A stretch of 59,888 bases of DNA from the IMG/VR virus record IMGVR_UViG_3300032797_000052, positions 1 through 59,888 of that record. One strand, given 5' to 3'. The position numbers were made by a program, and so were the translations under genes. Shown here in pieces: positions 53,675-59,719 of this stretch (position 1 is its first letter; the number at the start of each line of letters is the position of its first letter). The notes beneath the pieces were generated by a model, which searched no databases, had not been told where the DNA came from, and worked only from the letters and a program-made list of their open reading frames with translations. Source of the DNA: a virus.

Positions 53675-54112
53675 CTGTAAAGGTACAAGAGCATTATAAC
53701 CCGGATTCTAGTATTCCAGCTTTACATAATAAAATTTAGGACTCTGTTCTATTTGTAGAACAAAACCTTAAATAATAGGGTTTCGCATAGCCAACTTCGG
53801 GTTTAGTACTCAGTACTCTGTACTCAAGGAGGCTATAGTAACAGGAACTTAAAACTAATTCGGAATCTGAGTAAGCGTAGAGTAAACTAAAAAAGGCGAG
53901 TACTTAGTACTCATTACTAATTTGGATAGAAAACATAACAGTTGCCCCCAAGTAATGCGGATTCTATCCAGTTGAGTACTCAGTATATAGTAATTAGTAC
54001 TCATTGTCGAGTAAACAAATCAGACTAATCTGGCCTAATTACTATATGCTACATACTCAATAGAAAGTAGAATAATAGAAAATTTATTAGTTTATTGAGT
54101 ATTTTAGGTTCT

Positions 54113-54145
54113 GAGGTAACGGAATTTGAATAGAAATCGGGTTTT
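54113..54145 (+). repeat. 33-nt conserved block, copy 1
   Basis: GAGGTAACGGAA, seven variable bases, AGAAATCGG, then a T-rich end. The second copy is at 59587-59619 in the same orientation with identical spacing. GAGGTAACGG also occurs in the structured element at 58034-58151. Confidence 0.65.
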
Positions 54146-54334
54146 CTGAGTACTCAATACTGATTGACTGGCGATTGAGTAAATTGTTGTCTTTTGAGTA
54201 GATAAATAGTGTGTTTGTACTGTACAAATTATATTTTTGAGGTTAAAGTGCTATTATACTGTATTGTGAGTAATACAGCCTTATAACAGCATCTAATAGG
54301 ATAATCAACAAATACTAAGATTTCTTTCAGTCAA

Positions 54335-57089: not shown

Positions 57090-57184
57090 TACTCAGATTT
57101 GGGTACTCAGATGATGAGTAGGCCAAGAGTAGAGAAAAAACTTGAGTACCGAGCAGCAGTTTGAGTACTCAGTAATTAATACTC
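57090..57184. repeat. GAGTA/TACTC motif array, block 2
   Basis: About eight GAGTA or TACTC copies in 95 bp without a gene, ending in TTGAGTACTCAGTAATTA, which is nearly the same as 53972-53985 and its downstream sequence (ACTCATTGT and ACAAAC also shared). It lies between two converging terminators. Confidence 0.75.
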
Positions 57185-57197
57185 ATTGTAGACAAAC

Positions 57198-57262: not shown

Positions 57263-57847
57263 TTACAATGCAACACTGACTTCTGCCTCAGTAATTTTAC
57301 TATTGCGAGCCTTGGGTTCATTTGCTTGTCGAGGATAACGCTTGAATGATTCTCTAGCAGCATTTGTCTTAATGCCACACATTGTAATCAAATCCTTAAC
57401 ATTGAATATCATCATGCCACCGCGTGCAGCATAATTAACTATTACATTATAATCAGCAGGTTCTTTACTAAATCCTAATTGTTTGAATTTTGACGCAACT
57501 TCATTCACCCAAGCAGCAAATCCTAATTGTCTAGCACCACGCGCTGTACCACTACCACCGACAATTGCATTGAAAAGGAATTCTGCTTGATTAGGATTTA
57601 ATCCATTAATGAACTGAGATTCAGCATAGATTAAAAGTGGATTACCCTTACCGGCCACTTCTACTGAAATCTCATTAATCTGACCTTTTTCAACACTTGT
57701 GGCAATAGGTAATGTACTGCCAAAAGCTTTTAGACTAGGAAGAGTCAGTAAAGTAACTTTCTTTGTATTAGAAGTAGGCTTACTAATAGGTTTCTGAGGA
57801 ACTTTACTATTAGCTATTCTATTGTGCAGTTCCTTTTTACCAGTCAC
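57263..57847 (-). CDS. Hypothetical protein
   Basis: 194 residues from GTG at 57847, favoured by GAGG eight bases upstream; an alternative GTG at 57868 adds seven residues but overlaps the previous stop and lacks a site. A Lys/Pro-rich N-terminal tail (about 30 residues) is followed by an alpha/beta domain with VSVEVAGKGNPLLIYAES and a helical GTARGARQLGFAAWVNEVAS. No family recognised. It is the last gene of a leftward unit with the 46-residue gene. Confidence 0.65.
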   Translation of the reverse strand: MTGKKELHNRIANSKVPQKPISKPTSNTKKVTLLTLPSLKAFGSTLPIATSVEKGQINEISVEVAGKGNPLLIYAESQFINGLNPNQAEFLFNAIVGGSGTARGARQLGFAAWVNEVASKFKQLGFSKEPADYNVIVNYAARGGMMIFNVKDLITMCGIKTNAARESFKRYPRQANEPKARNSKITEAEVSVAL

Positions 57848-57860
57848 TTTATTTTCCTCG

Positions 57861-58001
57861 TTACTCACATACTTGCTTTAAGACTTTAACAGGAATTCTA
57901 ATCTTATCCGGGTTTCTAATAATTCTATCTTTACGCTTAGTTATCACTTTAACAGATTCATTACTAATATGGAACCTAATTCTTATATCATATGTTCGCA
58001 T
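57861..58001 (-). CDS. Small basic protein (46 aa)
   Basis: ATG at 58001 is preceded by AAGGAG six bases upstream. The product begins MRTYDIRIRFHISNESVKVI and ends LKQVCE; it is rich in Arg, Lys and Ile in beta-like alternation. It lies just downstream of the structured element at 58034-58151 and before the 194-residue gene, so it may be the controlled first gene of that unit. Confidence 0.6.
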   Translation of the reverse strand: MRTYDIRIRFHISNESVKVITKRKDRIIRNPDKIRIPVKVLKQVCE

Positions 58002-58033
58002 TGTAGGCTCCTTGACTATGCTATTAAAATGAA

Positions 58034-58151
58034 AAATGCTACTCAGATAAGAGTAGTAGAGGGTTTAAGAGGTAACGGCGAGACCTCTCATATTATAATG
58101 GCCGTTTCGATAATGATAAAAGTCTCTACTACTCATATCCGAGTAGCATTT
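58034..58151. ncRNA. Long stem with pseudoknotted hairpin, candidate structured RNA
   Basis: AAATGCTACTC (58034-58044) pairs with GAGTAGCATTT (58141-58151), GATA with TATC, and GAGTAGTAGAG (58051-58061) with CTCTACTACTC (58124-58134): 26 of 28 positions pair. Inside, AGAGGT/ACCTCT (58068-58073, 58083-58088) closes a 9-nt loop whose AACGGC (58074-58079) is exactly complementary to GCCGTT (58101-58106), which allows a pseudoknot. The fold works on either strand; being upstream of a leftward gene favours the minus strand, as a leader or a processed RNA. Confidence 0.65.
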
Positions 58152-58163
58152 CATTTATTTTAG

Positions 58164-58235
58164 TACGCCTACGAGGAATTGAACCTCGATCAATAGATTA
58201 AAAGTCTACTGCACTATCCTTTGTGCTATAGGCGC
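58164..58235 (-). tRNA. tRNA-Lys (TTT)
   Basis: Acceptor GCGCCTA/TAGGCGT with one G-U, D stem GCAC/GTGC, anticodon stem GTAGA/TCTAT with loop CTTTTAA, T arm GAGG-TTCAATT-CCTC and flanking pair. CCA is not encoded, so it must be added by the host enzyme. First-processed end of a three-tRNA leftward cluster. Confidence 0.93.
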
Positions 58236-58246
58236 ATGATTCTGAG

Positions 58247-58319
58247 TGGACTAGGGTAGACTCGAACTACCAGCCGACCGCTTATAAGACGGTTGCACGT
58301 ACCATCGTGCTGCTAGTCC
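58247..58319 (-). tRNA. tRNA-Ile (TAT)
   Basis: Acceptor GGACTAG/CTAGTCC with discriminator A; anticodon stem ACCGT/GCGGT with loop CTTATAA, so anticodon TAT for AUA codons; T arm GTAG-TTCGAGT-CTAC. Bacteria normally read AUA with a lysidine-modified CAT anticodon; a TAT isoacceptor supplies it without that enzyme. CCA not encoded. It lies 11 bp from tRNA-Lys. Confidence 0.9.
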
Positions 58320-58442
58320 AAAGATGCTGTAGTTTATTGGCTTTTATCCTACAGCGTATCCTGCCTGTAACTACTAACAGGTTGTCTTTTGGTGCCCACC
58401 TATTAGGTGCTCACCGCAGAGTAGTTTTAAGCCACAGGATAG
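58320..58442 (-). other. tRNA spacer with three hairpins
   Basis: Between the Ile and Leu tRNAs lie 123 nt with three stems read on the minus strand: GGTG-AG-CACCT/AGGTG-GG-CACC, CCTGT/ACAGG closing 8 nt, and GCTGTAG/CTACAGC. ATCCTGT and GCAGGAT could close the first two like an acceptor stem. The middle lacks a normal D arm and anticodon loop, so it is not called a tRNA. It may be a processing spacer or a decayed tRNA. Confidence 0.45.
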
Positions 58443-58526
58443 TCCCACCACCGAGATTTGCACTCGGACGCCATTACTGGCTGTGGATTTTAAGTCCACT
58501 ATGTCTGCTAGTTTCATCATGGTGGG
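58443..58526 (-). tRNA. tRNA-Leu (TAA)
   Basis: Acceptor CCCACCA/TGGTGGG with discriminator A; anticodon stem GTGGA/TCCAC with loop CTTAAAA (TAA, for UUA codons); long variable arm GCCA-GTAA-TGGC typical of Leu; T arm CCGAG-TGCAAAT-CTCGG. CCA not encoded. UUA and AUA codons are frequent in this AT-rich genome, which fits the isoacceptors carried. Confidence 0.92.
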
Positions 58527-58540: not shown

Positions 58541-58617
58541 CTGTATAGATGCGAATACTCAGGCGGATACTCACTGGCGAGTACTCCGAACCACTTTACA
58601 TCGTACTCTCAGTATAA

Positions 58618-58682
58618 CCCACTGTTCTGAGTATAAATGGAAGTTTCTCTTACTTCAGTACATTTATACTCAGAACAGTGGG
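58618..58682. repeat. Perfect 22-bp inverted repeat
   Basis: Positions 58618-58639 are the exact reverse complement of 58661-58682, with a 21-nt loop. Each arm contains a GAGTA or TACTC copy. It lies between the leftward gene at 58714 and the tRNA cluster. No U tract follows either way, so it is not a standard terminator. It may be a regulator-binding site or an RNase III-cut hairpin. Confidence 0.7.
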
Positions 58683-58713
58683 GGAGAGGGCGAACCCGAT
58701 AGACTAGACTAGT

Positions 58714-59097
58714 CTAGGATACTGTGGGAACGGGTAGAAGAATACTGATCTGTTTAACGGATTCAACATCCGTTATAACAGGCAATTCTACCACGTTCTC
58801 CACTATCTTTTCGGGCTGCATCAAAAGGGCGAGAGCCATTTGCCTCAGATCACCCTGATGCTGGTATCCGCGTAGATTTGTCTTTACTGGTACTATATTC
58901 CCATCATACGGGAGGAGGATAATCCAACGATCATCCTCAGTACCCTTCTCCCATCCAGTATTCAAGAACATGAGGGGAATATGGCGAAGTCCCTTACACA
59001 TCGCCCGAATTTCTGTACCAGATTTTCCGTATCTACTCGGACGTTGAGGCTCACCGGCTGAACCAGATGTATCAGGCTTCCCTGTTTTAGGGGTCAT
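58714..59097 (-). CDS. Hypothetical protein
   Basis: 127 residues with AAGGAG nine bases before ATG. A basic, Ser/Gly/Pro-rich N-terminus (TPKTGKPDTSGSAGEP) and then an alpha/beta domain (DDRWIILLPYDGNIVPVK, LRGYQHQGDLRQMALALL). Base composition is somewhat richer in G and C than its AT-rich surroundings. Its leader shares a motif with the unlinked gene at 54427. Function unknown. Confidence 0.65.
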   Translation of the reverse strand: MTPKTGKPDTSGSAGEPQRPSRYGKSGTEIRAMCKGLRHIPLMFLNTGWEKGTEDDRWIILLPYDGNIVPVKTNLRGYQHQGDLRQMALALLMQPEKIVENVVELPVITDVESVKQISILLPVPTVS

Positions 59098-59142
59098 GGA
59101 GTATTACTCCTTTTTGGGTACTATGTACCAGCCTGCCCATCA

Positions 59143-59199
59143 GGCGCGCCCTCTCCAGCCTTATTGTCCCACAGATTCCGAAAACGCACCTTAAAGATT
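59143..59199 (-). promoter_or_regulatory. Leader RNA motif, copy 2
   Basis: Read leftward, AATCTTTAAGGTGCG is followed by CGGA, TGGGACAAT, AAGG and TGG as in copy 1 (54335-54388). GGTGCG pairs with CGCGCC; the position that is U-A in copy 1 is U-G here, so pairing is kept with a changed base. It lies 46 bases before the 127-residue gene. Confidence 0.65.
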
Positions 59200-59237
59200 C
59201 CGAATGAAAATAATTTTATTATTTGATGGAATTTAGG

Positions 59238-59358
59238 TACTCAAGTGTTGAGTAAGCGGAGAGTAAAAGAGAAATCTTGAGTAGACAAAGAGTAAAATTG
59301 AAGAATTTAGTAGTTAAAACTTTTGAGTACTCAGTAAAAAGTAAAGGAATTTGGAGTA
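59238..59358. repeat. GAGTA/TACTC motif array, block 3
   Basis: About eight copies in 121 bp without a gene, including one TTTGAGTACTCAGTA palindrome (from 59321). The rest of 59200-59429 is plain AT-rich DNA with no gene that I can support. Confidence 0.7.
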
Positions 59359-59429
59359 AAAAAAATTATATTTAGTCCTAATATTCTATTATATATATTT
59401 ATTCTACCATAATTTGTTACTTTAAACAG

Positions 59430-59572: not shown

Positions 59573-59586
59573 CTTATATGCTCTCC

Positions 59587-59619
59587 GAGGTAACGGAAAA
59601 TTTTTAGAAATCGGAAATT
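59587..59619 (+). repeat. 33-nt conserved block, copy 2
   Basis: Shares GAGGTAACGGAA and AGAAATCGG with the block at 54113-54145, with the same 7-nt spacing between them. Confidence 0.65.
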
Positions 59620-59623
59620 TTTA

Positions 59624-59719
59624 TTACTTTATCAATATCCAAAATACTATAATAATTGTTAAACAAATTATAGTAGCCATTATAATACCTGTAATTTGTT
59701 CTCCGTTTAAAAGACACAT
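59624..59719 (-). CDS. 31-aa membrane micropeptide
   Basis: ATG at 59719 follows a weak GGAT site. Product MCLLNGEQITGI then a hydrophobic stretch of about 17 residues (IMATIICLTIIIVFWILI) and a final Lys. It lies 12 bp after the stop of the partial gene at the window edge. Evidence is the clear membrane span and the tight spacing only. Confidence 0.45.
   Translation of the reverse strand: MCLLNGEQITGIIMATIICLTIIIVFWILIK

What the first reader, a model, noticed from the sequence alone, without database searches (positions are those of the whole stretch)
58034..58151. Candidate new structured RNA: 28-position stem plus pseudoknot
26 of 28 stem positions pair, an internal hairpin has a 9-nt loop, and six loop bases are perfectly complementary to a downstream segment. 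The stem arms contain four GAGTA/TACTC copies. It sits between the tRNA cluster and a gene with a strong ribosome binding site. I know no Rfam family of this form.
Basis: seen in the sequence. Interest (0 to 1): 0.75.

Follow-up and report, generated by a model that had tools for sequence, protein, structure and literature searches.

The report
Conserved pseudoknotted phage leader RNA
A newly seen virus of bacteria carries, between its tRNA genes and the next gene, an RNA folded into a 28-base-pair rod with a knotted tip; a distant relative keeps the same shape in the same place with different letters, so it is very likely a real RNA, probably one that ends or cuts the transcript there, though its job is untested.

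Summary
Window 58034-58151 holds the strongest inverted repeat of this 59.9-kb phage record (28-nt arms, 26 Watson-Crick pairs, fold z about -9), an inner 6-bp hairpin with a 9-nt loop, and a 6-bp loop pseudoknot. No Rfam family matches. A second phage (IMG/VR 3300009034_000007, terminase 61%) has homologues of both flanking genes. Between them lies the same architecture: 29-nt arms, 63 interior nt (window 62), a 6-bp hairpin, a 9-nt loop whose last six nt form the pseudoknot, and 6 nt to the stem. The letters differ, with compensatory changes. This pseudoknot geometry arises in 0.16% of shuffles of the relative's interior. A scan of 0.8 Mb of related phage DNA found only these two with a long stem. 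The RNA strand is most likely minus: DNA mismatches mostly become G-U pairs there, and neighbouring genes and tRNAs are minus. In both phages the 3' arm alone is a terminator-like hairpin plus U-run. Best reading: a cis-acting terminator/attenuator and processing element in the leader of a conserved gene of unknown function. Structure rests on two sequences; function is inferred. The GAGTA/TACTC copies belong to a regional repeat shared by both phages.

The parts
58124..58151 (-). 5' arm of the long stem P1 (RNA read on minus: AAAUGCUACUCGGAUAUGAGUAGUAGAG)
58034..58061 (-). 3' arm of P1 (CUCUACUACUCUUAUCUGAGUAGCAUUU); on minus 27 of 28 pairs incl. one G-U, one U-U mismatch
58101..58106 (-). 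5' strand of the pseudoknot (AACGGC)
58083..58088 (-). 5' strand of inner hairpin P2 (AGAGGU)
58074..58082 (-). 9-nt loop CUCGCCGUU; last six nt (58074-58079) are the 3' strand of the pseudoknot
58068..58073 (-). 3' strand of P2 (ACCUCU), directly after the pseudoknot strand
58039..58056 (-). local hairpin CUACUC-UUAUCU-GAGUAG inside the 3' arm, with U-run at 58032-58036: terminator-like on minus
   Evidence: the relative has UCUGGCU-ACU-AGCCAGA + U7 at the same place
58008..58013 (-). ribosome binding site AAGGAG downstream of the element
   Evidence: sequence
57861..58001 (-). 46-aa ORF following the element
57263..57868 (-). conserved gene downstream (P0001, function unknown), 44-45% identical homologue in the relative G006
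58163..58235 (-). tRNA-Lys(ttt), upstream neighbour on minus (tRNA-Ile 58246-58319, tRNA-Leu 58442-58526)
58618..58682 (-). second long hairpin, 22-bp perfect arms, just after the stop of P0002; counterpart of 23 bp in the relative
58714..59097 (-). conserved gene upstream (P0002, function unknown), 31% identical homologue in the relative

Best explanation
A cis-acting structured leader RNA read from the minus strand. A 28-30-bp stem P1 encloses an A/U-rich strand and a compact pseudoknot (hairpin P2 whose 9-nt loop pairs through its last six nt with an upstream strand). It closes a non-coding/tRNA segment and precedes the conserved gene P0001. Shown by sequence: architecture, position, conservation by compensatory change, and a 3' arm that alone is a terminator-like hairpin with a U-run in both phages. 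Inferred: it ends or attenuates transcription from the tRNA/P0002 side so that only part of the RNA polymerase reads on into P0001, and its double helix of more than two turns is an RNase III-type cleavage site that frees the upstream RNAs. The knotted cap would hold the two arms together or be the binding site of a regulator.
For: Same locus, same gene order, same size and same pseudoknot geometry in the relative G006 with different letters. The relative meets the geometry predicted from the window; 32 of 20,000 shuffles do so by chance. In 0.8 Mb of related phage DNA only these two loci combine the pseudoknot with a P1 of 11 or more unbroken pairs (others 9; shuffled sequence also gave one hit in 0.44 Mb), and long arms occur among the relatives only there apart from a divergent-promoter pair and an A/T-rich repeat. 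Three of the four DNA-arm mismatches (window 1 of 2, relative 2 of 2) become G-U pairs on minus, none on plus. Terminator-like hairpin and U-run at the 3' arm in both. In the window only about 30 nt separate the U-run from the next start codon, so P0001 transcription has to come through the element or start within it. Arms of 28-30 bp, and the second hairpin of 22-23 bp, are at or above two helical turns, the size of RNase III substrates (general knowledge).
Against: No transcript data. The whole stem also abuts the U-run, so pairing of the arms need not prevent termination and real switching is unproved. A promoter-like TTATCA-16-TATAAT lies inside the element on minus and could serve P0001 instead, but none is reported at that place in the relative. 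P0001 has no known function and its structure prediction failed (pLDDT 46). Only two sequences. Host unknown.
Confidence: 0.45

Rival explanations
1. A stable trans-acting phage small RNA: the element is cut out (or made from its own promoter) and works as a free RNA, or as a double-stranded-RNA decoy for a host enzyme.
For: Compact fold with a long stem; more structured RNA in the same interval: a pseudoknotted 84-nt RNA between tRNA-Leu and tRNA-Ile (0.24% of shuffles) and several hairpins in the relative.
Against: No accumulating transcript known; strict position just before P0001 in both phages fits a cis role; no trans target visible.
Confidence: 0.25
2. Riboswitch- or protein-controlled attenuator: a ligand or P0001 binds the knotted cap and decides between the long stem and the local hairpins of each arm.
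For: Each window arm can form its own hairpin; in the relative the 5' arm can instead pair for 15 bp with a sequence just upstream, freeing the 3' arm to form its terminator.
Against: A 28-30-bp P1 is far more stable than the alternatives; the 15-bp upstream competitor is absent in the window; no conserved nucleotide core can be seen with two sequences.
Confidence: 0.15
3. A DNA-level element: two palindromic operator-like sites (TACTC-N6-GAGTA) of a phage DNA-binding protein, or a cruciform, with the RNA fold a by-product.
For: GAGTA/TACTC is enriched several-fold in this region of both phages and arranged in arrays at 53800-54280, 57090-57190 and 59100-59360.
Against: Does not explain the conserved pseudoknot inside, the G-U pattern on one strand, or arm pairing that continues beyond the motif; the relative's arms share only part of the motif.
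Confidence: 0.12
4. Chance inverted duplication or a miniature mobile element.
For: A hairpin with inverted ends is the shape of such elements.
Against: No other copy in the window, in 0.8 Mb of relatives or in viral contigs by exact patterns; no target-site duplication seen by eye; conserved position and geometry in a relative with diverged proteins.
Confidence: 0.03

Closest known systems
Intrinsic terminator / transcription attenuator leaders
   Same: 3' arm is a hairpin followed by a U-run, upstream of a gene, in both phages
   Different: 62-63-nt pseudoknotted cap and a 28-30-bp stem; ordinary terminators have short stems and small loops
RNase III processing hairpins of phage transcripts and of pre-rRNA (general knowledge)
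   Same: Double helix of more than 22 bp placed between transcribed units
   Different: Conserved pseudoknot inside; cleavage untested
Pistol self-cleaving ribozyme (Rfam RF02679, number from memory)
   Same: A hairpin loop forms a pseudoknot with a distant strand
   Different: Pistol has three stems with the pseudoknot in the P2/P3 junction and 10 highly conserved nucleotides (PMC4604425); no Rfam match here
Purine / 2'-dG riboswitch aptamers
   Same: Basal stem enclosing hairpins held by loop pairing
   Different: The third helix is chance-level in the window (P 0.51), P1 is far too long, no Rfam match
HK022 put RNA
   Same: Phage cis-acting RNA element in an early transcript
   Different: put is about 70 nt with two stem-loops and causes antitermination (PMC9378689); here a single long stem ending in a terminator-like hairpin

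Membership tests
Any Rfam family | Score above the family's gathering threshold | tested here: not met
   Searches (window; relative): only tRNA passes; miRNA-precursor hits are far below threshold and reflect a long hairpin
Pistol ribozyme | Three stems, pseudoknot between P1 loop and P2/P3 junction, 10 conserved nucleotides | tested here: not met
   No Rfam hit at E up to 10; layout differs (PMC4604425)
Intrinsic terminator | Hairpin with G-C pairs directly followed by a U-run on the transcribed strand | tested here: met
   window 58056-58039 minus, relative 6420-6404 minus; weak in the window (6 bp, 6-nt loop, 2-nt gap before five U)
Intrinsic terminator | Transcripts end there | not testable with these tools
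   no RNA data
RNase III processing site | Near-perfect RNA duplex of about two turns | tested here: met
   27 of 28 pairs in the window, fully paired in the relative on minus incl. G-U
RNase III processing site | Cleavage by RNase III | not testable with these tools
   needs enzyme assay or 5'-end mapping
Purine riboswitch | Three-way junction with conserved junction bases and kissing 7-nt loops | tested here: not met
   no Rfam match; third helix not above chance in the window

The most novel reading that the evidence does not exclude
A new class of phage regulatory RNA: a knotted cap on a two-to-three-turn RNA rod that senses a protein or ligand and controls read-through into a conserved phage gene, or acts as a free double-stranded-RNA decoy, in an uncultivated lineage of phages.
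Probability: 0.3. Interest if true: 0.75.

Novelty: new variant of a known kind. Interest (0 to 1): 0.55.

Why it matters
It is a candidate new RNA family supported by compensatory change in a diverged relative, found from raw sequence by eye. Phage tRNA clusters are known to host RNAs of unknown role (general knowledge); here the element persists in a phage whose syntenic interval has no tRNAs, which ties it to the neighbouring protein genes rather than to the tRNAs. It gives a defined 118-nt object with clear point-mutation tests.

Tried and rejected
Exact DNA patterns of the hairpin and arm in viral contigs: none. Element against phages by blastn: none. P0001, its homologue and P0002's homologue in phages or plasmids: none. 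P0001-family scans of viral and genome contigs gave only G006 or nothing. DNA polymerase as bait: one distant hit without the locus. Large relatives G007, G008, G009 (77-80 kb) lack matches to P0001, P0002 and the element. A hairpin next to a tRNA in G009 looks like two divergent sigma-70-type promoters. The repeat of GAGGTAACGG at 54113 and 59587 was considered as a link to the inner hairpin; too short to mean much. A third helix enclosing the pseudoknot strand (making it a kissing loop) is suggestive in the relative (P 0.015) but chance-level in the window. AlphaFold of P0001: pLDDT 46, not used further. A terminase relative in a Bathyarchaeota MAG is probably a misbinned phage contig and its genome has no P0001 match. 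Covariance model not built: only two sequences, and MAFFT misaligned them.

Full report
What is there. The window is a linear virus record of 59,888 bp of a tailed phage: terminase, portal, DNA polymerase, DnaB helicase and RecA genes are recognisable. Close relatives are absent from named phages; the terminase finds only a 31% match in phage GX15bay. Near the right end, on the minus strand, the order is P0002 (58714-59097), a 22-bp perfect hairpin (58618-58682), tRNA-Leu, a structured stretch, tRNA-Ile, tRNA-Lys, the element (58034-58151), a 46-aa ORF with a good ribosome binding site, and P0001 (57263-57868).

The decisive test. An alignment of terminases brought in 22 related loci. One record, G006 (96.7 kb, terminase 61%), carries homologues of P0001 (44-45%) and P0002 (31%) in the same order and strand. 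Between them, without any tRNA gene there, lie two long inverted repeats at the matching places: 29-nt arms at 93% with 63 nt between, before P0001, and 23-nt perfect arms after P0002. Read on the minus strand, the interiors are: window ACUUUUAUCAUUAUCGA [AACGGC] CAUUAUAAUAUG [AGAGGU] CUC [GCCGUU][ACCUCU] UAAACC; relative GAUAAUUCGAUAAU [UCCGCG] CUAAGUGUUAUUGAAA [CUCUAG] UUA [CGCGGG][CUAGGG] AAAACU. In both, hairpin P2 has 6 pairs and a 9-nt loop, three loop nt stay free on the 5' side, the last six form the pseudoknot, no nucleotide separates pseudoknot and P2, and 6 nt follow before P1. The window's geometry, taken as a prediction, is met by 32 of 20,000 shuffles of the relative; the equal 6-nt tail was not part of that test. 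All six P2 pairs and four of six pseudoknot pairs changed on both sides; 12 of 28 P1 pairs did, 12 are unchanged, among them a GAGUA run in the same register. A scan of 0.8 Mb of related DNA for pseudoknot plus enclosing stem gave these two with stems of 30 and 11 unbroken pairs (the window's continues to 28 with a mismatch); the other three hits have 9, and shuffled sequence gave one hit in 0.44 Mb.

Which strand. The RNA is most likely minus-strand: neighbouring genes and tRNAs are minus, and of four arm positions that do not match as DNA, three are G-U pairs on minus (the fourth U-U), none on plus. Folding of the relative is better on minus (-69.2 against -59.5 kcal/mol). With four positions this is an indication, not proof.

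How it may work. In both phages the 3' arm by itself is a terminator-like hairpin with a U-run on minus: window CUACUC-UUAUCU-GAGUAG CAUUUUU, relative UCUGGCU-ACU-AGCCAGA UUUUUUU. The next start codon in the window is about 30 nt beyond. So transcription of P0001 either reads through the element or starts inside it. The stem length suits RNase III (general knowledge). I therefore favour a terminator/attenuator and processing element at the boundary of a non-coding RNA segment and P0001. Termination, cleavage and regulation are inferences. In the relative the 5' arm can alternatively pair for 15 bp with a segment just upstream, which is the anatomy of an attenuator, but the window lacks this segment, so it cannot be a required feature.

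What the GAGTA copies are. GAGTA/TACTC occurs 198 times against 109 expected in the window, with the densest bins in the last 8 kb; the syntenic end of G006 has the same (92 against 15 expected), other relatives do not show such density. The arms share in this regional vocabulary; it is not specific to the element.

Limits. Two sequences are few; the relative was found through its genes, not by searching for the RNA, which makes it an independent test, but significance rests on one comparison. Three other relatives of 77-80 kb lack matches to the genes and the element. No expression data and no host are known.

Noticed in passing
53800-54280, 57090-57190, 58550-58690, 59100-59360: Arrays of GAGTA/TACTC, some as GAGTACTC palindromes, in intergenic DNA; the same enrichment at the syntenic end of G006 (L039:1-8000). 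Perhaps binding sites of a phage regulator or an origin.
   Followed up: partly
58355-58438 (minus): Between tRNA-Leu and tRNA-Ile: tRNA-shaped RNA with 7-bp UAUCCUG/CAGGAUA ends, a CCUGU/ACAGG arm directly before the 3' end, and a 7-bp pseudoknot AACUACU with its 8-nt loop (0.24% of shuffles).
   Followed up: partly
58618-58682 and L039:6770-6860: Perfect 22-24-bp hairpins right after the stop of P0002 in both phages, each with a GAAG...CUUC inner hairpin and a purine-rich loop; no U-run.
   Followed up: partly
54110-54154, 59584-59628, L039 near 7752: Similar non-coding GTAACGG...TAGAAAT element upstream of P0002 in both phages and once more in the window.
   Followed up: no
L039:6560-6745 (minus): In the relative, in place of the tRNAs: two hairpins whose loops are complementary (CACUCG/CGAGUG) and a GAGUAGUAG stem enclosing a possible pseudoknot.
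   Followed up: no
L039:10525-10644: A further imperfect inverted repeat with 29-nt arms and 62 nt between in the relative (z -4.5/-5.3), without the pseudoknot geometry.
   Followed up: partly
L064: Terminase relative (58%) on a contig filed under a Bathyarchaeota MAG; probably a misbinned phage.
   Followed up: partly
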